From contig NZ_AULT01000032.1 in NCBI RefSeq assembly GCF_000422425.1, positions 1 through 64,000 on the forward strand: a DNA stretch of 64,000 nucleotides, given 5' to 3'. Position 1 is the stretch's first letter. Every line of letters begins with the position of its first letter. The notes below the pieces were generated by a model, which was not told where the DNA came from, ran no database searches, and saw only the letters and a list, made by a program, of their open reading frames with translations. This document shows, one piece after another, positions 468-45,977 of this stretch. A program made the translations under genes and the position numbers. Origin of the DNA: Oceanospirillum beijerinckii DSM 7166 (GTDB lineage Bacteria > Pseudomonadota > Gammaproteobacteria > Pseudomonadales > Halomonadaceae).

Positions 468-1649
468 ATGCTAAGCCGAGAGGACCACAACATGATAAAG
501 CAACTTCGTGATCAGGGGATGTACCTAATCGATATTGCCAATCAAATAGGCTGTTCTGAACGCACTGTCAGACGTCAACTGGCTTTACCCGCACCACAGC
601 CTCACCCAAAAAGAGCTCAGCGCCCCTGTAAGCTTGATCCATATAAAGACTTCATTGATAAACAGCTCAGTGACAATATCTGGAATGCGGAAGTCATCTT
701 CCAGATGTTACTTGAACGAGGCTATACCGGCTGTCGAAGCCTGGTTCGAAAATATATTCAACCCAAACGCCCCCTTAGGAGCAGTAAGCAAACAGTCCGT
801 TATGAAACTGAGCCCGGTTATCAGCTACAGCACGACTGGGGGCAAGTTCAGACCGAGATCGCAGGACAGAGCTGCAAAGCAAATATTGCCGTCAATGTGC
901 TGGGCTTCTCTCGTTATTTCCATGTCTGGGCTGCCCCCAGCCAGAATGCCGAGCATACCTATGAATCGCTTGTGAGAGCGTTTCATTACTTCGAGGGCGT
1001 CCCCAAACAGGTGCTTGTCGATAACCAGAAAGCAGCGGTTCTTCAGCATCCCAGAAACGGAAAAGTGGTGTTTAATGCAGGTTTCCTTGAATTAGCTAAC
1101 CATTACGGCTTCACAGCCAAGGCCTGCCGTCCACAAAGGCCTCAAACTAAAGGGAAAACTGAGCGTATGGTGGGCTATGTTAAGCATCACTTCTTTCAAC
1201 GCTATCGCAGCTTTGAGAGTTATGCTCATCTCAATCAGTTATTAGAACAGTGGTTAAGTACTTACGTCCATCAGCGTATCCAGCGCCAGTTCCAATCCCC
1301 GGCGGAACGTTTTTGTAAGGAGCAAAAGGTACTTCTACCTCTGCCAAATCAGGACTTCGATACTCGCTATCATGATATACGCCTGGTGGGTTGGGATGCT
1401 TATATTGATGTGCGTGGTAACCGTTATAGCATGCCAGCAGAGTACTGCGGACAACAAGTCAGTATCCGTATCAGCTTATACGACGAGTTAAGCATCTATG
1501 ACGTACAGAGCAACCTCATCGCTCAGCATCGTTTGCAAACGCAGCAGCCACACTGGCAGACCGTGCCAGAACATCATCAGTCTCTTTGGCAGCATGTACA
1601 ACCGGTACAACAGCGTGACCTGAGCGTGTACGAGGAGGTGGTCAGATGA
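468..1649 (+). CDS. istA: IS21-family transposase IstA
   Basis: A 393-residue DDE/RNase H-fold transposase that catalyses strand cleavage and transfer for the surrounding element. The N-terminus has an HTH (residues about 5-38, MIKQLRDQGMYLIDIANQIG then CSERTVRRQL). The integrase core follows, with HDWGQ near residue 124 (first Asp), VDNQKAAV near 186 (second Asp) and TKGKTERMVGY near 228 (catalytic Glu). The C-terminus has the beta-rich DNA-binding region usual in IstA. Length is normal and no stops or frameshifts interrupt it, so it should be functional. Its stop overlaps the istB start in an ATGA, the translational coupling typical of the family. Confidence 0.95.
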   Translation: MLSREDHNMIKQLRDQGMYLIDIANQIGCSERTVRRQLALPAPQPHPKRAQRPCKLDPYKDFIDKQLSDNIWNAEVIFQMLLERGYTGCRSLVRKYIQPKRPLRSSKQTVRYETEPGYQLQHDWGQVQTEIAGQSCKANIAVNVLGFSRYFHVWAAPSQNAEHTYESLVRAFHYFEGVPKQVLVDNQKAAVLQHPRNGKVVFNAGFLELANHYGFTAKACRPQRPQTKGKTERMVGYVKHHFFQRYRSFESYAHLNQLLEQWLSTYVHQRIQRQFQSPAERFCKEQKVLLPLPNQDFDTRYHDIRLVGWDAYIDVRGNRYSMPAEYCGQQVSIRISLYDELSIYDVQSNLIAQHRLQTQQPHWQTVPEHHQSLWQHVQPVQQRDLSVYEEVVR

Positions 1650-2449
1650 ACCTTGATGAACTGCTTGAGCGTCTGAAGATGGAGCACCTTCACGCGACAC
1701 TGGATAGCTTATGTGAGCATGCGAGTAAAGAGGACCTGACCTACCGGGAGTTTTTGGAACAGGCATTGGCACAGGAGTGGGGTGGCCGACATCAGAAAGG
1801 CTTAGAAACAAGATTAAAACAGGCTCGCCTTCCCTGGATAAAATCGCTGGAGCAGTTCGACTTCAGCTTCCAACCGAGCATAGATCATAAGTTAATCAGG
1901 GAGCTATCCGGTCTGGGCTTCGTAGAGCGCAATGAGAATGTGGTTTTACTCGGTCCTCCTGGGGTTGGCAAAACGCACTTAGCGGTAGCTCTGGGAGTGA
2001 AAGCGGCAGAAGCCGGGCATCGTCTTCTGTTCATGAGTCTAGATCGTCTGGTCAGTACGTTGGTAAAAGCACGGCAAGAGAATCGGTTAGATCGGCAGCT
2101 GCAGCAACTGAGTTATCCGAAAGTGCTGATACTGGATGAGATCGGCTACTTACCGATGACACGGGAAGAAGCCGGCCTGTTCTTCAGACTCATCAATCGT
2201 CGCTATGAAAGAGCTAGCACTATCCTGACCTCGAATAAGAGCTTTACGGACTGGGGAGAAGTATTCGGAGATCAGGTGATGGCTACCGCGATCCTTGATC
2301 ATTTACTGCATCACTCAACGACGCTGAATATTAAAGGAGAAAGTTACAGGCTGAAGGGCAAACGAAAAGCAGGGTTAATCCCTCGCAGTGACTTATCCAG
2401 AGAGGTTGCAGATGTAGATAAACCGGACAAAATGGATAAGCAAGAGTAA
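1646..2449 (+). CDS. istB: IS21-family helper ATPase IstB
   Basis: A 267-residue AAA+ ATPase related to DnaC that selects target DNA and activates IstA. Walker A is GPPGVGKTH (near residue 104), Walker B is VLILDEIGYLP (near 164), and sensor-type residues are in STILTSNKSF. The N-terminal helical region (residues 1-60) matches the IstB family. The start overlaps the istA stop by 4 bases, giving a coupled operon. The ORF is full length, and the right terminal repeat begins only about 10 bases after its stop, so both element genes look intact. Confidence 0.95.
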   Translation: MNLDELLERLKMEHLHATLDSLCEHASKEDLTYREFLEQALAQEWGGRHQKGLETRLKQARLPWIKSLEQFDFSFQPSIDHKLIRELSGLGFVERNENVVLLGPPGVGKTHLAVALGVKAAEAGHRLLFMSLDRLVSTLVKARQENRLDRQLQQLSYPKVLILDEIGYLPMTREEAGLFFRLINRRYERASTILTSNKSFTDWGEVFGDQVMATAILDHLLHHSTTLNIKGESYRLKGKRKAGLIPRSDLSREVADVDKPDKMDKQE

Positions 2450-2505: not shown

Positions 2506-3573
2506 CCGTTTTGATAATGCTTTGGACCTGTTTAACCGCTTGCTGCTCATTACGATGGGGGCGAAATCCGAAACTATTGCTCGAGAAATCTGGATCGAAG
2601 ATGGGCGTTAGAACTTGGGCTATGGCTTGTTGGATTACGCGATCAGTAACTGTTGAGTTTTATCTCCAAATAGGCCCAGCTGGCGTTTACCGACATCAGG
2701 TTTATCGATTTCAACACGTCTGACCGGGTAAGGGTAATATTGATCTGTTTCCAGTTCTTGAACCACCCGTTTCCAGTTGCCTGATTTAACCCAATCGGGG
2801 AATTCATCAATGGTCATTCCATCAATGCCAGCAGCCCCTTTATTGGCTCGAACTTGTTTCCATGCAACCTGAAGGTTATCAGGCCGTAGTGCCTGTTCGA
2901 GTAGATCTGTGCGAACCAAAAGTAGGCGCCTTAGGCGAGGCTGGCTTCATGACAATACGCTGAGTCATGTCTCCACCGGGCGGTGTTCGTGCGTTCAAGT
3001 CTGACAAGGCTCCTCCTTTATTCAACTGAGTGTTCAGGCCTTCGCCTAAAGCGCCTACTGTTGGCAGCGTGTCCCATCCATTACGATGGGTGTTAGGCTA
3101 CTATGCCGTCTGCTGACTTCTGCTTAATCGCCCGTAGAGTTACCTCTATTGGCGCTATCGGTATCCATCTTGTTCGCTCTCCTTTGTCGATGGAGTCAAA
3201 GGAGCCAAGGCACTTCTATACCAGAGCCTCACTGGTTACAAACCGATCGCCTGTTAAGCAGATCTCCCCCCCTCTTTATAAATAGAAAGGGGGGACATGA
3301 ACTTTCCCTGCACAACTGCATCATTTACGGTGGCCGTTAAGTCACGTGGCTTCGTTGTCTTGTGCCAACTCGCCTTCAGCCTACGCCTCATATGATGTTC
3401 TTGTTCATCAGCTCGCAGTTTTGCTAGCGGCTTCCTCCAGACCTTCCCTCACGGTTAGGCCCTTGCCATTCGCGAGTAGTTAACATCTAATAACGGTAAT
3501 AAACCGCTATGGATGGTGACCTTCCTACAGAGGACTTTCACCTCATTAGTTCATGCCTATGCTGGGCGTACAC
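2506..3573 (-). mobile_element. group II intron, 5' part, truncated by IS21
   Basis: Read on the minus strand from 3573, the sequence starts GTGTACGCCCAGCATAGG and continues with AACTAATGAGGTGAAAGTCC. This resembles the conserved 5' end and early domain I of bacterial group II introns. About 650 bases later the intron-encoded reverse transcriptase begins (2919), the normal distance for domains I-IV. The intron stops abruptly at the IS21 right end, so domains V/VI and most of the reverse transcriptase are missing. No feature other than intron RNA is visible between 2920 and 3573; short ORFs there look incidental. It cannot splice or move by itself. Confidence 0.75.
2511..2919 (-). pseudogene. 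group II intron reverse transcriptase, N-terminal remnant
   Basis: From a TTG at 2919 the protein has the conserved maturase/RT N-terminus: LLEQALRPDNLQVAWKQV, then NKGAAGIDGMTIDEF and later YYPYPVRRVEIDKPD with VGKRQLG. This frame stops at 2635. The family motif resumes in another minus frame as VTDRVIQQAIAQVLTPIFDPDF then SNSFGFRP up to the IS21 boundary, so a small insertion has caused a frameshift between GKRQLG and VTDRV. The catalytic YADD region and maturase domain are absent. A dead remnant of an LtrA-like protein. Confidence 0.85.
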
Positions 3574-3616: not shown

Positions 3617-3714
3617 TGCGTTAGTTGCCTTATCAATATCTCATGTTCAATTTAATGTACAGGTGGAGTGGTGAGGACTATACTTGTCTCATTAAACGTA
3701 CATGTGGTGGTTTT

Positions 3715-3969
3715 ATGAGAATTGTATCTTTTACCGAAGCTAGAAATAGCTTGAAGAGCGTTTTGGATGCTGTTGTTAATGACGCCGATACAACAGTTAT
3801 TACACGTCGTGATTCTGAAGATGCTGTGGTTATGTCTTTAGATTACTACAATAGCCTTATGGAGACAGTGCACTTACTACGCTCTCCTCAAAACGCTGAA
3901 CACTTAAACCGTTCTATAGCACAGTACCGTGCTGGTAAAACAACAGCACGAGAGTTAATTGATGAGTAG
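3715..3969 (+). CDS. yefM: YefM-type antitoxin (Phd/YefM family)
   Basis: An 84-residue antitoxin that binds DNA through its N-terminus and neutralises YoeB through its C-terminus. The start chosen is the ATG at 3715 (MRIVSFTEARNSLKSVLD), the standard YefM N-terminus, with a GGTGG 5 bases upstream; the longer ORF from 3625 adds unrelated residues. DYYNSLMETVHLL is the family core and the tail QYRAGKTTARELIDE is the toxin-binding segment. It overlaps the toxin gene by 8 bases. The family normally represses its own promoter, which should lie in 3625-3710. The pair sits between two group II intron fragments, beside an attC-like sequence, as in integron cassettes. Confidence 0.9.
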   Translation: MRIVSFTEARNSLKSVLDAVVNDADTTVITRRDSEDAVVMSLDYYNSLMETVHLLRSPQNAEHLNRSIAQYRAGKTTARELIDE

Positions 3970-4231
3970 TAGTCAGCGTTTACTGGCGTGGACTGATGAC
4001 GCTTGGGACGACTACCTGTATTGGCAAACTCAAGACAAAAAAACACTCAAGCGTATCAATAAACTCATCAATGATGTTAAGCGTTCTCCATTTGAGGGCA
4101 TCGGTAAACCTGAGCGATTGAAAGAGAACTTATCTGGTTTTTGGTCCCGTCGTATTGATGATACTAATAGGCTTGTTTACGCAGTCGATGATCAGGCCAT
4201 AACGATAATCTCATGTCGTTATCACTACTAA
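3962..4231 (+). CDS. yoeB: YoeB-type mRNA interferase toxin
   Basis: An 89-residue RelE-superfamily ribosome-dependent endoribonuclease. Family motifs are present: AWDDYLYWQ at the N-terminus, INDVKRSPFEGIGKPE in the middle, LSGFWSRRIDDTNRLVY, and the C-terminal CRYHY that contributes the catalytic His-Tyr. All expected catalytic positions (Glu in FEGIGKPE, Arg in SRRIDD, terminal His/Tyr) appear, so the toxin looks active. Translation is coupled to yefM through an overlap; ATG at 3962 is preferred to the TTG one codon earlier. Confidence 0.92.
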   Translation: MSSSQRLLAWTDDAWDDYLYWQTQDKKTLKRINKLINDVKRSPFEGIGKPERLKENLSGFWSRRIDDTNRLVYAVDDQAITIISCRYHY

Positions 4232-4256: not shown

Positions 4257-4575
4257 ATCGGGTAGCCGAGGGTATCTAGCCCTCAGCCCCCACAACACCC
4301 TGCATGCGGGTCCGCACAGGGCGTTTCACTCAGGGTAGTGAAGCTTAATCGAACCATCTCGTAGCGAGTAAAGCCCCTCAGGTTTCAGGTAGTCCACGGG
4401 AGGGCCTGATTAATCCCCGGGGTTTTAGTGCTACGCCACGGCCCTTTGCTGGTGATGCCACACGCAACTGCGGCTTTAATATGAACACCAAGACCGATAC
4501 TGTTCAGTACACTTTCACCTGAACGTTGGCTTTTGACCAAGACGCTATTCAAGTCAGAGAGTATGAAAAATCAAT
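4257..4575 (-). mobile_element. group II intron 3' end remnant
   Basis: On the minus strand the end reads as an intron terminus. A domain V-like hairpin (about 4295-4325, GCCCTGTGCGG pairing with CCGCATGCAGGG) is followed by a domain VI-like stem (about 4257-4291, GAGGG/CCCTC) and the terminal CTACCCGAT at 4257. It directly follows the C-terminal coding end of a group II reverse transcriptase. The upstream (higher-coordinate) body is missing. It has the same orientation as the 5' intron fragment at 2506-3573 but lies upstream of it, so the two are pieces of different copies. The exact right edge is uncertain. Confidence 0.75.
4326..4550 (-). pseudogene. group II intron reverse transcriptase, C-terminal remnant
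   Basis: The minus strand encodes the characteristic C-terminal tail of group II intron proteins: GVHIKAAVACGITSKGPWR followed by STKTPGINQAL. A one-base frameshift then occurs, after which VDYLKPEGLYSLRDG and SIKLHYPE with a stop at 4326-4328 complete the tail in the next frame. The N-terminal two thirds are absent. The remnant is bounded on its low side by the domain V/VI region, exactly as in intact introns. Confidence 0.8.
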
Positions 4576-32488: not shown

Positions 32489-34246
32489 TTAAACTATAGT
32501 AAATCCAAGTCCTTTCAGTTGCTCTTTTTCCTCAGGCTTTAGCGTTTTGACGGCCCAAATTAGATACTCTTTGGGCCGTGATGATGCTACATAAGAAAAC
32601 CTAGCGGCTTCACTATTTGGATTCTTAAGCCAACTTTTCCAGTGAGAATCATTTCCAGCTCGATCTGAGGATATCACTATAGTGATATCGTGAGTTTCCC
32701 CTTTGGCACCATGAATCGTTGACTTTCTGTATAGCAGGGATGGTTTTGCTGTAGCTCCTAATGATTTGCTAACCTTTGACTTGGCCTCGCCGGATGGTGC
32801 TCTTAAGTTTACTTTTTCTAGTGGGGTCAATACTCTAGCAATGTCTTCATGACAAAAACTTTGCTTTGGGAGTGTTTGAATTAGCATTTTTGCTTTCTTT
32901 ACCCAGTTTGACCAATCGATATCAATCTTCTGTAAGCTGTTGTTAATCAAATGGCTTAAAGATTCATAAAGAAATCTACGCCACATAAGGGATGAATCTA
33001 CAGATTGGGGGCAGTTGAAACTATTTGGTTTGTAACTTTCTTTTAGATGATAACGAATAAACTCAGAGAAGTGCCACAAAGAGAGGTTCATTGCTTCCAT
33101 ATCTTTAGGGTCATAAAGTTTAATCGCAAGGGCTAGTTTTTGAATGTTCTTCAGATTGGTTGTTGAAGCCTGAAACTTACTAAGGGTAGAGTGACCTCTT
33201 GCGACTACAACATTGTTGTTATAACCATTGCATTTTTCCTCAAAAATTTCTACTAACTCAGTAGGGCAGTTATTGTATTGAACTACTAAACACCGCGGGT
33301 CTAGCCAAGATACATTTCCAATAATTTCTTCTCGCTTGGTTAATTTTGTACAAATATTGATGATATTTTGGCAGCTTCTAAAATTTCTTGTTAGTTTCAA
33401 ACTGGTAAAGCAATTGTTGCGAATGAACTGAGATACCTTGGCTGGGTCAACGCCTCTAAAACTGTAAATAGCCTGATGAAGGTCCCCAATAAAATGCAAT
33501 TGTGTGCCTTTGCCTGACAGCACCTGAAGGATGATTAACTGTTCTTCAGAGAGATCTTGACATTCATCAATAATGATTAATGGATAACGCCTTACAAATA
33601 AATCAACGAAATTCTCGTACTTTTCTCCTGAAAGGACCTCTAGAGCTAAGCACTCAATGTCACGGTAAGTCGCAAAGCCGTTTCCTAACATTTTGATTTT
33701 GGTAGCTTTTAGATCTCTAACTTGCCAATCTTCTAGCTGAATAGCGTTCAAGGCTCGATCTAGTTTAGAATCCCCGGTTTCAAAAATTATATTCTCATTT
33801 ATTAGATTCAAAGAGTAGTGATGAGCACATATTTGCCCTCGTTGTGCATAATGGTATTGAGTTTTATAGCCTAGGAGTGCACTTGGTTCAATGATACGGA
33901 TTGATGCATCTTTGCTCTCTCCAACGTACCTCGTTAGTTCTATCGATAGTGGGGAAACAATATTTTTGTAAATGAAGCTATCAAATGTACCTAAAAAATG
34001 AGGAAACATACTACGGCCATGGGGCAGGTACTTCGATACTCTTATTGTTAACTCTTCAGTTGCGCTATTGGAAAAAGAAAGTGCTGCTAACCCCCCTGGA
34101 TTTTTCTTCCAGGAATTAATCTCCTTAGCAACCTTTGCTGCAACTACCTCTGTTTTTCCGCTTCCAGGGCATGCTTCTAAGAAAATGTGTTCTTCGATAC
34201 TCGAGCCGACATAATCAAGCTGTTCTTTCGTAAACTCTACTGACAT
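32489..34246 (-). CDS. gajB: UvrD/Rep-like helicase, Gabija GajB-like
   Basis: A 585-residue superfamily 1A helicase. Motifs in order: Q/Walker A EACPGSGKTEVVAAKV (residues 24-39), Ia AALSFSNSATEEL, II IIIDECQDLSEEQ, III HFIGDLHQAIYSFRG, IV SLKLTRNFRS, V STIHGAKGETHDITIVIS and VI FSYVASSRPKEYLIW. In Gabija (class 2 OLD systems) such a helicase senses DNA ends or nucleotides and works with GajA in a large complex. The start overlaps the upstream gajA stop in TAATG, so the pair is one operon. It is somewhat longer than the about 500 residues of described GajB proteins. Confidence 0.85.
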   Translation of the reverse strand: MSVEFTKEQLDYVGSSIEEHIFLEACPGSGKTEVVAAKVAKEINSWKKNPGGLAALSFSNSATEELTIRVSKYLPHGRSMFPHFLGTFDSFIYKNIVSPLSIELTRYVGESKDASIRIIEPSALLGYKTQYHYAQRGQICAHHYSLNLINENIIFETGDSKLDRALNAIQLEDWQVRDLKATKIKMLGNGFATYRDIECLALEVLSGEKYENFVDLFVRRYPLIIIDECQDLSEEQLIILQVLSGKGTQLHFIGDLHQAIYSFRGVDPAKVSQFIRNNCFTSLKLTRNFRSCQNIINICTKLTKREEIIGNVSWLDPRCLVVQYNNCPTELVEIFEEKCNGYNNNVVVARGHSTLSKFQASTTNLKNIQKLALAIKLYDPKDMEAMNLSLWHFSEFIRYHLKESYKPNSFNCPQSVDSSLMWRRFLYESLSHLINNSLQKIDIDWSNWVKKAKMLIQTLPKQSFCHEDIARVLTPLEKVNLRAPSGEAKSKVSKSLGATAKPSLLYRKSTIHGAKGETHDITIVISSDRAGNDSHWKSWLKNPNSEAARFSYVASSRPKEYLIWAVKTLKPEEKEQLKGLGFTIV

Positions 34247-36189
34247 TATTCTTTCTCAGTATTATTTGATGAAGAAGCCCAAAGAATGGCTTTTTTAATA
34301 TATTCAGGAACGGCAAAATCAACATGTTCGCGTTGTATTTTGTCAGTCATGACTTGGGCGAACATCCCTTTTCCAATATTATCATCATCGATTCGTTTCA
34401 GGATTTGATGAGCTGCTTCGGCCACTTCTTTTCGTGTTTTTGTTGTCCAATCTATAGTGGACATTTTTTTGAATTCTTCGATTATAGTGCTTTGGCCTGT
34501 TTTAGGTTCAGGCCAGAGAGATGTAATTATATAGGACATTAATGCAGCATTGTTACCCTCCATGGCAAGGTCATATTCCAATGTTTTGTATTTGCTCACG
34601 AATAGACGTGCATTGGTTGATTTGTTAATAGAGTTAACAAGTTTAAGGGCATGGTTAGTGCCACTTTTTATATTGCCATCGAATGGAATGAAGTCTTCAT
34701 GTATTGTTTTTGTTTCACCTTCTTTTTCTGGGTCAGGCACTTCTTTAGGGATTTTTTTAGGTGGGTCGAGATCTGTTATACCTGCACACTTTACCGGAAT
34801 ATTTTCGCCAATATTCCTTTCCTCAGGATTATCGGGGTTCTCAATGTTACAATATAATTGCATGAAGTGTCTGAAGTAGATGCCATTGAGGTTGATTGTT
34901 GAGACACCAAGGTCCTCAAGGCTCTTACGACCTATCTCCTGATCCTTTAGAACTATTTTAGCCAAAGTTGGAATGATCATTTGTTCTGCAATCCCTTCGA
35001 CCAGGATTACACCACCGGCAAATAGCAGGTTTGATTTTGTGACATCTAACCAACGATTGATAAATTGGCTACTAGTTGTTGGCAAGCCACAAGCTTTAAG
35101 AGGTGTAGCTATCGGATTTGGTGATTTAGATAGATGAATGATTGACTCAAGTTCAACCGAAGAGGCTAATACCGTTGAATGAGTTGTTACGATAACCTGA
35201 ACATTTTTGTTCTCTTCAGCTACTGACTTTAGGTGGTTTAGCAGTCTAACTTGTAGCTGAGGATGTAGATGGGCTTCTGGTTCTTCAATAAGCAGCAATT
35301 TAAAAAGGGGTTGCTCTTCATCTTTATCATCAAACGTAAGCTCTGCCAAAATCGAAGCTATGTAGAGGAGGTTATTATAACCCAAGCTATTTTGGTTAAG
35401 CTCGCGGAATAACTCTCTATCCTGAGAAGACATATCAGGAAAGAAAAGCAGAGTTAGTCTTTCGGCAATTTTTGTAAAATCACTTTCCGCAAACTGAATG
35501 CTGGTTTGTTGTCCAAAGTGATGTCCAATAGCTTTAGTTAAGTTGGTAGTTATGAGTTTATTAGCATCGCTAATGCTTAAGGCATCATCTTCAGCTAAGG
35601 AACTGTTGAAATCTTTTAGCTTTGCTTCAAGAGGATGTAGTTTATCCTCTGTTCTACACTGCTTCAATTGTTTGCGATTTAGAGCCTTAAGGAGCTTTGA
35701 TAGCCTAGATTGTCGGCCGTTTGATAATTTGGACTCAGCATCTCTCAGCGGTGGTAAATAGATGCACTGGATCAGATCTAGCAGTTCTGGATCAAATTGG
35801 GAGCTTTTAGATCTCCCGCCCCAAATAATTTTTTTGAACCGTCCTCGTATTTCCTTATTTTCCGCTTGTAGGTTTAGTAGTGCAGTGTCAGAGGTTCCAA
35901 TCCAAGGAAGAAAAGCCACCTTTTTTTCTACATTTAATCCATCAAACTCAGCCGATATTGAAAGGGATGTTGCTGATTGTTCGTTAGTAAATGGAGTGAA
36001 AAAGTCATCGCTTGTGATACTGTATCTACCAGATTCAGAGTCGTGGAAAAGTTGTCGAATAGCGCTGATTATTGCAGTTTTACCCGCTCCATTTTCACCT
36101 ACAATTACATTCAAACTATCTGTAAGTTGAATCTCAAATTCATTTTTGAAACAGCGAAACCCTTCAATATTTAGTGTACTTAAATACAT
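34246..36189 (-). CDS. gajA: OLD-family ATPase/TOPRIM nuclease, Gabija GajA-like
   Basis: A 647-residue class 2 OLD nuclease. The N-terminal ABC-type ATPase has Walker A IVGENGAGKTAII (residues 29-41), a signature-like SLGYNNLLYIASI and Walker B LLIEEPEAHLHPQLQ. The C-terminal TOPRIM domain has the catalytic Glu in AGGVILVEGIAEQMIIP and the acidic pair in CAGITDLDPPKK. The two-gene arrangement with a UvrD helicase defines Gabija. It should nick or cut phage DNA when nucleotide pools drop. Sequence is AT-richer than the flanking housekeeping genes, consistent with acquisition; no integrase is adjacent. Confidence 0.87.
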   Translation of the reverse strand: MYLSTLNIEGFRCFKNEFEIQLTDSLNVIVGENGAGKTAIISAIRQLFHDSESGRYSITSDDFFTPFTNEQSATSLSISAEFDGLNVEKKVAFLPWIGTSDTALLNLQAENKEIRGRFKKIIWGGRSKSSQFDPELLDLIQCIYLPPLRDAESKLSNGRQSRLSKLLKALNRKQLKQCRTEDKLHPLEAKLKDFNSSLAEDDALSISDANKLITTNLTKAIGHHFGQQTSIQFAESDFTKIAERLTLLFFPDMSSQDRELFRELNQNSLGYNNLLYIASILAELTFDDKDEEQPLFKLLLIEEPEAHLHPQLQVRLLNHLKSVAEENKNVQVIVTTHSTVLASSVELESIIHLSKSPNPIATPLKACGLPTTSSQFINRWLDVTKSNLLFAGGVILVEGIAEQMIIPTLAKIVLKDQEIGRKSLEDLGVSTINLNGIYFRHFMQLYCNIENPDNPEERNIGENIPVKCAGITDLDPPKKIPKEVPDPEKEGETKTIHEDFIPFDGNIKSGTNHALKLVNSINKSTNARLFVSKYKTLEYDLAMEGNNAALMSYIITSLWPEPKTGQSTIIEEFKKMSTIDWTTKTRKEVAEAAHQILKRIDDDNIGKGMFAQVMTDKIQREHVDFAVPEYIKKAILWASSSNNTEKE

Positions 36190-36453
36190 AATTTCCCTAT
36201 TGGTTATTTGAGTGCTATTGCTATAAGTGTTGATGATACTGTAATTAAGAGGTCAATGAAATTATTAGGGCAGGGTTTTTATCGGATGTGTAATAAATTT
36301 GTTTTGAATCAAGTATAGACCTGATGGGCATCCTTTCTTTTGAGCTGATCAATGGTGGTAGGTCAATAAAATATTAAAGGTCGGATTAAATGATCTATTG
36401 CTTTTATTGTTTGGGTGCTATATAAAAATATAATTAATATCTGAATGATATAG

Positions 36454-36481
36454 AGTAAAGCCAGATTGCTCTGGCTTTACT
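36454..36481 (-). terminator. hairpin at the end of the rRNA methyltransferase-like gene
   Basis: AGTAAAGCCAGA and TCTGGCTTTACT form a perfect 12-base stem with a 4-base loop just after the stop at 36490. No long T-tract follows on either strand. The remaining 36190-36453 stretch is AT-rich and holds only the presumed gajA promoter. Confidence 0.65.
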
Positions 36482-36489
36482 TTCATTGT

Positions 36490-42875: not shown

Positions 42876-45800
42876 TTACTCCATAAAAAACTGATTAAAA
42901 CTTTCTTCTTCTCCCATTGCTTTGCGAATACGCGCTGCAAACAGTGGGCTTTCCTGGCAATATAAAAGACCTTCCTGAAGGTATTGGTGGGCTTCTGTGG
43001 ATTCGGAACAGAGAGCTAATAGGCGGAACATCTCCGGAACATAACACTCTTCACCATGTTCAATGCCGAAGGTAATGCCCTTATGCAGCACCTCTATAGC
43101 TTCCTTAATCTTGTTTGTTTCCAAGTAAATTTCGGCAAGAATAGTACTATATAGCGAGTAAGCAATTTTATCCCCACTGCTTGCAAGCCATTGTCGATAT
43201 CCCCGGTCAACAATACTGGCTGCTTGAGGGTTTTTATTGAGTTTGTGTTTTGCCCAACCCGAAAATAGTGCCGCAACACCTCTGTAAAATGGGAAATTCA
43301 TACTTATGGATAGAGCTTCCAATTCCTGTGCCGCTGCCAATGACTGAGCTGGTTTATTATGGTGGTAATCTAACCAGGCGCTGCCTTGCAAAGCGATAGA
43401 TAAGCTGAAATCATGCTTAAGATTGCGCATCTCACGCATAAGGTCGTTACGGTATTGCTCTGCTTCTTCTTTATGTCCCAAAATAGAGGCCGACCAGATT
43501 GCAAAGCAGCCTGCTAATGCCCTGGGATCTTGCCCCATTAATTGAATAGATACTTTGGTGTACTCAGGTTTATAAAGACGCAGCGCATGGTTTGCAGCGG
43601 ACTCCGCTTGCTTATGTTTTCCACGCCAAAACAGTGTATTAGCCAAGGCAGTGTAGGCGTGGATACAACCCTGGTCATCATTTAGCATCATGGATACGTC
43701 TAAGCAGCGGTTGGCTAACTCTTCTGCTGCAACCATGTTTAGCGTGGATATTTCTATGGTCCATAAACCAAACAGCGCCATTGCCAAACGTTTGTCTGCT
43801 TCTTTCTGTTTGCATAGCTCTTCTATACGCAAATAAGAGCTTTTTAGAAGAGGTGAAACCCAACCATATTTTACTTTGTAGATACTGGATAATGCCAGTT
43901 GGATATCGATTTCTATATCGCTGATATCTTTCTCAGAACAGGATCTGGCCAATTGAAGAGCTTTATTTAGTATGCGTTCAGACTCATGATAAAGGCCTTT
44001 TTGTAACAGATTGGTGGCAGCCTGGGAATGATACTTGGCGCCTTTTAATAGATGCCCTGCTTGTTCAAAGTGGTGAGCCAGGCTATAGACATCGAGCTGA
44101 GGCATCTTATCCAGTCTTTTTTCCAAATAATCGGCAACAGCTTGGTGATATTTACGTTTAACTTCGTTAGAGAGTCGCTCCCTTACAATATGTTGAACAA
44201 GCTTATGGCATAGGCTGATACTTAAGTGAATATCAATTTTTACCAGTTGGGCTGAGACCAGGCCTTCTGGCGAGTAGCTTTTCTGCTTTAAGAGGTCCTT
44301 TACAACACTTAAAGGGAGTGGGGCTTCACAAATACAGAGTAGCTCAAGAACACGGCGATCTTTCTCATTCAGCTGTAATAACTTTTGTTCAACCAATAGC
44401 TGTAGGGAAGAGGGTATTTCTTCACTATTCTCAGGCTGAGAAGTCAACAGTTGAATCAAATATAATGGGATACCACCAGACCATTGAATGCAGCGTCGTA
44501 TATAATCTTTTGGAAGATGATTGAACTCATTACACAAGCGCTCGACTTCTGCCTCTGATAGAGGGCCTAATGGCACTGTTGAGAAATGACAGTAGTCGTT
44601 AATAAAGGGTTCTAATGTTATCTGATTCTGATATTCAGTCCGGCTGGTAATAATACAGCTTATTGGCAGATGTTTACAGAATGTCAGCAATTTGCCTAAT
44701 AGCTGACAACCTTTGTAATTCGCTAAATGCAGATTATCTACAGTGATCAATAGGCTATGCACCTGCCAGCTCAGGAATATAGTAAACATCTTTGCCATTG
44801 CGGCCAGCACTTCATCTTCGTTGACTGGTTGGGCATTTTGCCAATGCTCTTTGCTATTAATAACCTGAGTACTGAGGTCCAGCAGCTGGACAAAAAACAC
44901 TTGTTGGTTGGCGGGTACTTCCTGATTAAACAGCAGACCGAGTATTTTTTTCTCAGGCCAGCGCTTTTTTGCCTGCGCAAAAAGGTTTTGGCATAAGCCT
45001 GCTGTTAATTGGTGTAAGGGATCATTCCATCCGGCCTCCAGATCAATATCCGCAACAAGAATTTCCTGGAGATACGCTTGTTCATGAATAGCATTGATAA
45101 GCCTGCTTTTGCCAATACCTGCCTGACCATGTATATGAGTAATCGCAGGGCAATTACGACGCTTAACGCCATCCAGTAGGCCGCTGAGCTGGAGCAGTTC
45201 TGTACTTCTTCCAATAAGAGGCAGAGTTTGTTGTAAGTGCTTTTCACTATGCAATAACCAGAGGTGGTGTTCCGATTCATGGCTGGTGCGATAATTAAAA
45301 TGTGTATCACTGATTTTATAGAGATCAGTAGATACAATAATAGAGTCACAGGGAATGTAAGTTGAGTGTTGGGCAAACCATTGTAAAACAGGTGGATCAA
45401 TGATGGCTTCTTCCAAGCCTTGCTGTACGGGGCCTAGTTGCAATGCTGCATAAAAATGAACAGGGAGTTCCCGGTCAAGTAAGAACTGCTGGATTTCCAG
45501 GGCTACCAGCTGGGCATGTAAGTGCCCTTTATTATTGATAGTTTGATGGCCAAATGTGGCTAAAATAGTGTTGCCAAGAGCTTCCCGCCATAAGCTACCA
45601 CTACGTTGTAATAGCTTTATAACATCTTGTGTCAGTTCTTCCGTAATATCCCAAGAATCAAAACGTAGCCATAGAATAGGTAATATAGAGTGAGCAGCTA
45701 AAGAAGTGCCATACAAATTTAATGCGTCATCTTGTGACTGATTTTTTTCGTCGTCTTCTACCAGAGTAACTTCACTGATATCAATATCAAAAAAGGCGGC

Positions 45801-45977
45801 CAGATTTCTTGCTGTACGAAGGCTAACTCTTTTTCCTGCTTCTGCCCGTTTTACTGTGGCAATAGATACAGTCAGGCGGCGTAACTCGCAGGCGTATACT
45901 AAACCTTCTTGACTAAGCCCTTGAATTTGCCGTAATTGCTTGAGTTTTTCACCGTCAAGCAGCAGTTTAGAGTCCAT
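42876..45977 (-). CDS. HTH-XRE / cyclase-like / STAND ATPase / TPR regulator
   Basis: A 1033-residue multidomain protein. Residues about 9-60 form an XRE HTH (LKQLRQIQGLSQEGLVYACE). Residues about 95-245 look like a degenerate class III nucleotide cyclase domain (WLRFDSWDITEELTQDVI; NTILATFGHQ), lacking clear metal-binding Asp pairs. A STAND/AAA ATPase follows: IGRSTELLQLSGLL, Walker A HGQAGIGKSRLINAI (near 285), and SLLITVDNLHLANY as Walker B. From about 600 to the end are TPR-like helices. Such proteins are large signal-responsive regulators, but the ligand is unknown. Same strand as, and 526 bases upstream of, the DUF917 operon. Confidence 0.8.
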   Translation of the reverse strand: MDSKLLLDGEKLKQLRQIQGLSQEGLVYACELRRLTVSIATVKRAEAGKRVSLRTARNLAAFFDIDISEVTLVEDDEKNQSQDDALNLYGTSLAAHSILPILWLRFDSWDITEELTQDVIKLLQRSGSLWREALGNTILATFGHQTINNKGHLHAQLVALEIQQFLLDRELPVHFYAALQLGPVQQGLEEAIIDPPVLQWFAQHSTYIPCDSIIVSTDLYKISDTHFNYRTSHESEHHLWLLHSEKHLQQTLPLIGRSTELLQLSGLLDGVKRRNCPAITHIHGQAGIGKSRLINAIHEQAYLQEILVADIDLEAGWNDPLHQLTAGLCQNLFAQAKKRWPEKKILGLLFNQEVPANQQVFFVQLLDLSTQVINSKEHWQNAQPVNEDEVLAAMAKMFTIFLSWQVHSLLITVDNLHLANYKGCQLLGKLLTFCKHLPISCIITSRTEYQNQITLEPFINDYCHFSTVPLGPLSEAEVERLCNEFNHLPKDYIRRCIQWSGGIPLYLIQLLTSQPENSEEIPSSLQLLVEQKLLQLNEKDRRVLELLCICEAPLPLSVVKDLLKQKSYSPEGLVSAQLVKIDIHLSISLCHKLVQHIVRERLSNEVKRKYHQAVADYLEKRLDKMPQLDVYSLAHHFEQAGHLLKGAKYHSQAATNLLQKGLYHESERILNKALQLARSCSEKDISDIEIDIQLALSSIYKVKYGWVSPLLKSSYLRIEELCKQKEADKRLAMALFGLWTIEISTLNMVAAEELANRCLDVSMMLNDDQGCIHAYTALANTLFWRGKHKQAESAANHALRLYKPEYTKVSIQLMGQDPRALAGCFAIWSASILGHKEEAEQYRNDLMREMRNLKHDFSLSIALQGSAWLDYHHNKPAQSLAAAQELEALSISMNFPFYRGVAALFSGWAKHKLNKNPQAASIVDRGYRQWLASSGDKIAYSLYSTILAEIYLETNKIKEAIEVLHKGITFGIEHGEECYVPEMFRLLALCSESTEAHQYLQEGLLYCQESPLFAARIRKAMGEEESFNQFFME

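What the first reader, a model, noticed from the sequence alone, without database searches (positions are those of the whole stretch)
32489..36189. Two-gene Gabija-type anti-phage operon
An OLD-family ATPase/TOPRIM nuclease (647 aa) overlaps by one base with a UvrD-like helicase (585 aa). Walker A/B, TOPRIM Glu and Asp-x-Asp, and helicase motifs I-VI are all visible. Established knowledge: class 2 OLD plus UvrD helicase is the Gabija arrangement. Both proteins are longer than described forms, and the operon is AT-richer than neighbours, so it may be an uncharacterised subtype.
Basis: partly seen in the sequence, partly recalled or inferred. Interest (0 to 1): 0.75.

Follow-up and report, generated by a model that had tools for sequence, protein, structure and literature searches.

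The report
Ordinary Gabija anti-phage gene pair
Two adjoining bacterial genes encode a DNA-cutting enzyme and a helicase that together form Gabija, a common and already described defence against viruses; this copy looks intact and horizontally acquired, and it belongs to a branch that existing models already recognise.

Summary
The window carries an intact gajA-gajB pair at 34246-36189 and 32489-34246, minus strand, sharing one base. Both proteins match PADLOC Gabija models over nearly their whole length (GajA PDLC00091, E 6e-276; GajB PDLC00129, E 8e-248). [quoted passage not shown] Close relatives with GajB directly downstream occur in 8 of 8 other species found in one scan, several beside mobile-element genes. 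No close copy was found in 5 of 5 same-genus genomes. The operon is the most AT-rich stretch of its size in the window, so acquisition is likely. An uncharacterised, unusually long subtype is not supported: the best PADLOC models are 627 and 594 positions long. What is true is that this branch is far in sequence from the B. cereus prototype and has the active-site set of the Burkholderia/Xanthomonas class 2 OLD nucleases. Verdict: new member of a known kind, low interest.

The parts
34246..36189 (-). gajA: class 2 OLD nuclease (ABC-type ATPase + TOPRIM), 647 aa
   Evidence: PADLOC GajA PDLC00091 E 6.3e-276, residues 1-644; Pfam AAA_15 and OLD-like_TOPRIM above cut-off; AlphaFold model mean pLDDT 86.7, best PDB match B. 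cereus GajA
32489..34246 (-). gajB: UvrD-like SF1 helicase, 585 aa
   Evidence: PADLOC GajB PDLC00129 E 8e-248, residues 3-585; Pfam UvrD-helicase E 1e-27; B. cereus GajB is best PDB hit of the 10-sequence profile
36076..36099 (-). GajA Walker A, residues 31-38 GENGAGKT
   Evidence: read from DNA; G31, N33 and K37 in 35 of 35 aligned GajA
35263..35298 (-). GajA Walker B region, residues 298-309 LLLIEEPEAHLH
   Evidence: read from DNA; conservation in the viral rows is partly by construction because IEEPEAH was one of two search patterns
34996..34998 (-). GajA TOPRIM Glu E398 (B. cereus E379, BpOLD E400)
   Evidence: E in 35 of 35; correspondence read from the profile alignment to B. cereus GajA
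34765..34773 (-). GajA DxD, D473 and D475
   Evidence: D in 35 of 35 at both; read from DNA
34576..34584 (-). GajA metal-B residues T536 and E538 (BpOLD T506, E508)
   Evidence: T in 30 and D in 5 of 35 at 536; E in 35 of 35 at 538; roles from PMC6755086 (passages)
34369..34371 (-). GajA K607, candidate equivalent of BpOLD K562 and B. cereus K541
   Evidence: K in 30 of 35, the same five rows differing as at 536; correspondence by motif position, not by superposition
34151..34174 (-). GajB Walker A, residues 25-32 ACPGSGKT
   Evidence: G28, G30, K31, T32 in 30 of 30
33554..33568 (-). GajB DExQD box, residues 227-231 DECQD
   Evidence: D227, E228, Q230, D231 in 30 of 30
36190..36489 (-). AT-rich leader between the upstream methyltransferase gene and gajA; presumed promoter region, with a 14-pair hairpin at 36452-36483
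   Evidence: sequence; hairpin; no sigma-70 consensus match there, so the promoter is presumed only

Best explanation
This is a complete two-gene Gabija anti-phage system. GajA is an ABC-type ATPase fused to a TOPRIM nuclease (class 2 OLD); GajB is an SF1 helicase, probably made from the same message. By analogy with the studied systems the two assemble into one complex, GajB works on DNA, GajA senses nucleotide or DNA state through its ATPase half, and its two-metal TOPRIM site nicks or degrades incoming phage DNA. Shown here: gene order, homology, catalytic residues, predicted fold of each protein. Inferred: assembly, DNA cleavage, and the trigger, for which I favour unprotected linear phage DNA ends (RecBCD-free DNA, as reported for Pseudomonas aeruginosa PA14 Gabija) over nucleotide depletion at about 55 to 45. 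Because its metal-B pair is Thr/Glu as in the non-specific BpOLD and not Asp/Glu as in the site-specific B. cereus GajA, I expect non-specific cleavage (inference, about 0.55). The pair was probably acquired horizontally.
For: PADLOC GajA and GajB as best models over nearly full length. A profile of 35 GajA including this one has B. cereus GajA as its top PDB hit, E 1.1e-58 over positions 1-515. The 10-sequence GajB profile has B. cereus GajB as top PDB hit, E 8.1e-19. Foldseek best hits of the GajA model are B. cereus Gabija GajA chains, E 3.8e-22. E398, E402, D473, D475, E538 in 35 of 35 aligned GajA. GajB directly downstream in 8 of 8 other species found. In the viral scan a GajB-profile ORF lies within 120 nt downstream of the GajA ORF in 57 of 78 loci and in 38 of the first 39, L065-L103; the exception there, L068, ends at the contig end, and L077-L079 show only a 102-aa GajB piece. 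No close copy in 5 of 5 same-genus genomes. Literature: PMC10781630 (passages), PMC10822852 (passages), PMC12407980 (outline with abstract, discussion, passages), PMC10568477 (passages), PMC6755086 (passages).
Against: The window GajA alone, and a profile of its 8 close members, do not reach B. cereus GajA in the PDB at E <= 1, so prototype biochemistry cannot be carried over in detail. The GajB model is structurally closest to UvrD/Rep/PcrA; Gabija GajB appears first at rank 31. TM-scores of the GajA model to the prototype are moderate (0.51). In 21 of 78 viral loci no GajB-profile ORF follows; these are mostly low-scoring OLD- or AAA-like rows or cut loci. No expression or phage data. Ten further window proteins gave no convincing PADLOC hit, so a defence-island context was not seen.
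Confidence: 0.93

Rival explanations
1. A mechanistically distinct Gabija branch: same architecture, but a different trigger or DNA preference from the B. cereus prototype, because of its BpOLD-like active site and the extra segment after the DxD motif. (Overlaps with the best explanation; the odds do not exclude each other.)
For: B. cereus GajA is not reached by direct search with the window protein. At 536 Thr in 30 and Asp in 5 of 35; the same five rows (L107, L112, L117, L126, L128) also lack the Lys at 607 in this alignment and form one clade (100/100) on a long branch; of these five only L128 was tested against the PDB, and it matches B. cereus GajA (E 1.2e-36). The segment D475-E538 is 64 residues in the window and its 6 closest aligned relatives but 44 in L065/L066. 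In B. cereus a lysine-rich loop 436-442 just after DxD sets substrate selectivity (PMC10822852, passages).
Against: PADLOC already covers this branch with its own models. The segment length varies from 33 to 121 residues across the 35, so it marks no clean subtype. The five deviating rows are one clade, so this is one evolutionary event, and their missing Lys may be misalignment in a divergent C-terminus. Class 2 OLD nucleases of this active-site type have been in print since 2019.
Confidence: 0.25
2. A housekeeping OLD/RecF-type repair protein that happens to lie beside a UvrD-type helicase, not a defence system.
For: The GajB fold is closest to UvrD/Rep; a non-defence role of an OLD-family protein is reported in an archaeon (PMC12796447, start of abstract in search listings only).
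Against: GajA models outscore Old by about 800 bits; no close copy in 5 of 5 same-genus genomes; relatives on a plasmid record and beside transposition, integrase, resolvase and phage lysozyme genes; tight pairing in close relatives.
Confidence: 0.03
3. A decayed, non-functional remnant.
For: Two of the eight close relatives look broken: Vibrio owensii gajA has an in-frame stop and Colwellia polaris gajA is split over two contig ends.
Against: In the window both frames are full length, stop-free and keep the catalytic residues looked at.
Confidence: 0.04

Closest known systems
Gabija branch of PADLOC models PDLC00091 (GajA) and PDLC00129 (GajB); homologues in Vibrio europaeus, Photobacterium arenosum, Marinomonas polaris, Shewanella benthica, Proteus terrae, Alteromonas sp. 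MMG017
   Same: 71-79% identity over full-length GajA and 60-70% over GajB, same gene order and abutting junction
   Different: host and genomic location; no functional difference was tested
Bacillus cereus VD045 Gabija (prototype, PDB 8SM3 and others)
   Same: same two-gene architecture; best PDB match of the 35-sequence profile and of the predicted GajA fold
   Different: GajA not detected directly; prototype proteins shorter (578, 494 aa); prototype has Asp-Leu-Glu where the window has Thr-Leu-Glu
Burkholderia pseudomallei and Xanthomonas campestris class 2 OLD nucleases (PDB 6NK8, 6NJV)
   Same: E400, E404, D455, D457, T506, E508 all matched by the window; found by the 8-sequence profile at E 3.4e-8 and 2.2e-8, over about 65-70 residues only
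   Different: solved as C-terminal regions only; phage targets listed as unknown for BpOLD in the review; full-length sequences not compared here
Pseudomonas aeruginosa PA14 Gabija
   Same: taken as a functional model in a gammaproteobacterium (PMC12407980)
   Different: no sequence comparison made; its sequence was not at hand

Membership tests
Gabija | GajA: ABC-type ATPase plus TOPRIM nuclease of the OLD family, GajA model as best hit | tested here: met
Gabija | GajB: UvrD/PcrA/Rep-like helicase encoded directly next to gajA, GajB model as best hit | tested here: met
   structure alone did not discriminate, GajB first at rank 31
Gabija | Intact TOPRIM active site (Glu, DxD) and ATPase Walker motifs | tested here: met
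Gabija | GajA-GajB heteromeric (4:4) complex | not testable with these tools
   only single chains were predicted
Gabija | Protection against phage needing both genes | not testable with these tools
   needs a plaque assay
Class 2 OLD nuclease | Metal-binding set E400, E404, D455, D457, T506, E508 and a helicase gene downstream | tested here: met
   E398, E402, D473, D475, T536, E538; set taken from PMC6755086 passages
Class 1 OLD (single gene) | No helicase partner | tested here: not met
   gajB overlaps gajA by one base
Septu / retron PtuA, PARIS AriA | PtuB HNH, reverse transcriptase or AriB partner (partners recalled) | tested here: not met
   the partner is a helicase; PtuA model 70.8 bits against a cut-off of 500, AriA 134 bits against GajA 915

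The most novel reading that the evidence does not exclude
The branch to which this pair belongs works differently from the B. cereus prototype: its GajA is a non-sequence-specific processive nuclease of the BpOLD type (Thr-x-Glu plus catalytic Lys) whose action on phage DNA ends is gated by GajB, so that the site-specific, nucleotide-sensing model holds only for the side branch with Asp-x-Glu.
Probability: 0.2. Interest if true: 0.4.

Novelty: new member of a known kind. Interest (0 to 1): 0.14.

Why it matters
As a genome annotation it adds one more intact Gabija in a gammaproteobacterium. Its only wider use is as a representative of a branch that is distant from the B. cereus Gabija complex, the only Gabija GajA-GajB complex that I recognised in my PDB searches, and nearer to class 2 OLD nucleases solved as isolated C-terminal regions; a structure from this branch would test how far the B. 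cereus model can be generalised.

Tried and rejected
Looked for a precise empty site: the kinase, regulator and DASS transporter genes on one side keep their order in 3 of 3 same-genus genomes fetched there (G002, G004, G005), but the methyltransferase gene of the other side lies elsewhere in the three where I fetched it (G001, G002, G004), so the insertion borders stay open. Looked for flanking repeats: the only pair with one copy on each side of the operon is a 21-nt direct pair at 76% identity inside the two neighbouring genes, which I take as chance. No sigma-70 match in front of gajA. PADLOC scan of 10 of the other window ORFs of 150 aa or more: nothing convincing; the rest were not scanned. 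E. coli complete genomes: no DNA-level match. Phage records: 13 with a match, best 40.6%. Plasmids: 460 records with a tblastn match, 196 covering 80% or more, best about 60% identity. Class-wide sample: PDLC00091 at E <= 1e-60 in 6 of 369 genomes, the window's own included; among 14 control genomes it rang in Methanosarcina acetivorans. RecF-like and class 1 OLD readings were rejected on score and gene context. Three paper searches listed no paper that I recognised as being about this branch, but none was aimed at it by name, so I claim no absence in print.
Full report
Observation. The operon has a GC content of 0.386 against 0.456 for the rest of the window, and 0 of 1058 stretches of equal length that do not overlap it are as low.

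Identity. Against PADLOC the upstream protein has GajA PDLC00091 as best model (E 6.3e-276, residues 1-644 on positions 1-625 of 627) and the downstream protein GajB PDLC00129 (E 8e-248, residues 3-585 on positions 10-592 of 594). Old (108 bits) and AriA (134 bits) lie far behind GajA (915 bits). Pfam models above their cut-offs include AAA_15, AAA_21, DUF2813, SMC_N, AAA_23 and OLD-like_TOPRIM for GajA, and UvrD-helicase and AAA_19 for GajB. None of the NCBIfam rows shown for either protein reaches its cut-off.

Link to the prototype. The window GajA alone does not reach B. cereus GajA among PDB chains at E <= 1, nor does a profile of 8 close members. An intermediate, L128 (566 aa), does (E 1.2e-36), and a profile of 35 GajA proteins including the window's has B. 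cereus GajA as its best hit (E 1.1e-58). The 35 were chosen by me: the window, 6 of the 9 genome-contig loci and 28 of the 78 viral loci. For GajB a profile of 10 finds B. cereus GajB first (E 8.1e-19). An AlphaFold model of GajA (35 sequences, mean pLDDT 86.7, pTM 0.82) has B. cereus GajA chains as its best PDB matches (E 3.8e-22, TM 0.51). The GajB model (30 sequences, mean pLDDT 81.7, pTM 0.69) matches UvrD, Rep and PcrA best and Gabija GajB first at rank 31, so for GajB the sequence evidence is what discriminates.

Active sites. The class 2 OLD set defined on BpOLD (E400, E404, D455, D457, T506, E508, K562; PMC6755086, passages) corresponds to E398, E402, D473, D475, T536, E538 and, by motif position, K607. 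In 35 aligned GajA the first four and E538 are present in 35, Thr at 536 in 30 with Asp in 5, Lys at 607 in 30. The five rows that differ are the same at both sites: L107, L112, L117, L126, L128, one clade in the tree; the missing Lys may be misalignment. B. cereus GajA shows Asp-Leu-Glu in place of Thr-Leu-Glu in the profile alignment. Invariance of the IEEPEAH stretch is partly by construction, because that peptide was one of the two patterns used to find the viral rows. In 30 aligned GajB, chosen likewise, G28, G30, K31, T32, D227, E228, Q230, D231, G254, D255, Q258, R290, H512, K515, G516, V553 and R557 are invariant.

Length and subtype. The proteins are longer than the prototype's (578 and 494 aa in the PDB chains), but their best PADLOC models are 627 and 594 positions long, and in my aligned sets GajA runs from 566 to 713 aa and GajB from 540 to 609 aa. 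The suggestion of an unusually long subtype therefore falls away. The branch is real: in a tree of 46 GajA proteins the window groups with Photobacterium, Vibrio, Marinomonas, Proteus and Alteromonas copies (6 rows, 99/95), then with Shewanella (100/99), then with two viral-contig copies L065 and L066 (98/97), then with an Acinetobacter nosocomialis plasmid copy (100/100), while the five Asp-type rows sit apart on a long branch. Of those five only L128 was tested against the PDB; L117 shares its best PADLOC model, PDLC00066. The tree has several long branches and its deep order is unsure.

Distribution and mobility. In one scan of one genome per species, 43 stretches matched the search patterns and 9 loci in 8 species encode relatives, 71-85% identical in the best segment (the 85% is a 439-residue piece); GajB follows directly in 8 of 8 species. 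The scan finds close relatives only. Settings include a plasmid (V. europaeus, record title), Tn7-like transposition genes (Colwellia polaris: TnsD/TniQ, TniB and Mu-type transposase domains upstream of gajA), a resolvase and a tyrosine integrase (Alteromonas), a resolvase and a ParA-like protein (Shewanella), a DnaB-like helicase (Proteus) and a phage lysozyme gene (L065) (10 flanking proteins scanned; L066 has the same ORF order). OLD-UvrD Gabija pairs as frequent Tn7-like cargo are in print (PMC8649781, passages). The operon is AT-richer than its flanks in 8 of 10 loci measured, equal in L033 and slightly less AT-rich in L034. In the host genus the best GajA hits in the 5 other genomes are E 2.2e-12 to 4.2e-4 (the best, in G002, has no GajB hit in its locus) and PDLC00129 finds none of 5 at E <= 1e-40. 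Among all 57 other genomes only G037, same order, exceeds E 1e-50; most of the other matches are weak, and many fall in frames of about 1170-1240 aa, the size of SMC proteins. The kinase-regulator-DASS genes on one side are conserved in 3 of 3 same-genus genomes fetched there, without Gabija next to them; the other flank is not syntenic, so the borders of the insertion are not known. The window holds no tRNA gene and the site no convincing flanking repeat.

How it probably works. For B. cereus, GajA and GajB form a 4:4 octamer, the TOPRIM site cuts DNA, and mutations in either ATPase site abolish defence (PMC10781630 and PMC10822852, passages; octamer also in the abstract start listed). For P. 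aeruginosa PA14, Gabija is reported to act on linear DNA not occupied by RecBCD, without growth arrest, and its authors argue against the nucleotide-depletion model (PMC12407980, abstract and discussion). BpOLD and XccOLD cut non-specifically in vitro (PMC10568477, passages). I therefore expect an ATP-controlled, largely non-specific nuclease acting with GajB on phage DNA ends. Only the anatomy is shown here; the rest is inference.

Verdict. A correct call of an already well-known defence system, with an over-reading of its length as a new subtype. Interest is low.

Noticed in passing
window 468-2449 (+) and 2635-3458 (-): Two ORFs (468-1649 and 1646-2449) that look by eye like IS21 istA/istB lie beside group II intron domains (Rfam RF02001 at 3294-3458 and RF01998 at 3037-3154, minus strand) and a 94-aa ORF that by eye resembles the start of an intron-encoded reverse transcriptase (2635-2919): perhaps an intron cut short by the insertion sequence.
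   Followed up: partly
window 4257-4326 (-): A further group II intron piece (RF00029) lies on the wrong side of the other pieces to belong to the same intact intron.
   Followed up: no
window 3625-4231 (+): Two small adjoining ORFs look by eye like a YefM-YoeB type antitoxin-toxin pair, between the intron pieces; no profile search was made.
   Followed up: no
L031:1353-3296: Vibrio owensii gajA carries an in-frame stop after 117 codons while the downstream gajB is open: a decayed copy or a sequencing error.
   Followed up: partly
L038:7315-7445 and L039:1-133: Colwellia polaris gajA is split at about residue 439 over two contig ends; both ends share an 8-base word at the break, next to unlike sequence, as an insertion sequence with an 8-base target duplication would leave.
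   Followed up: partly
L153:6473-8920: In the same-genus genome G001 a PLD-like protein and a GmrSD-type protein lie directly upstream of the homologue of the methyltransferase gene that flanks Gabija in the window; possibly another defence cluster.
   Followed up: partly
window 42876-45977 (-): A 1033-aa protein with an HTH start, an AAA_16 ATPase domain and TPR repeats, reminiscent of STAND-type regulators; only weak PADLOC hits to HTH models.
   Followed up: partly
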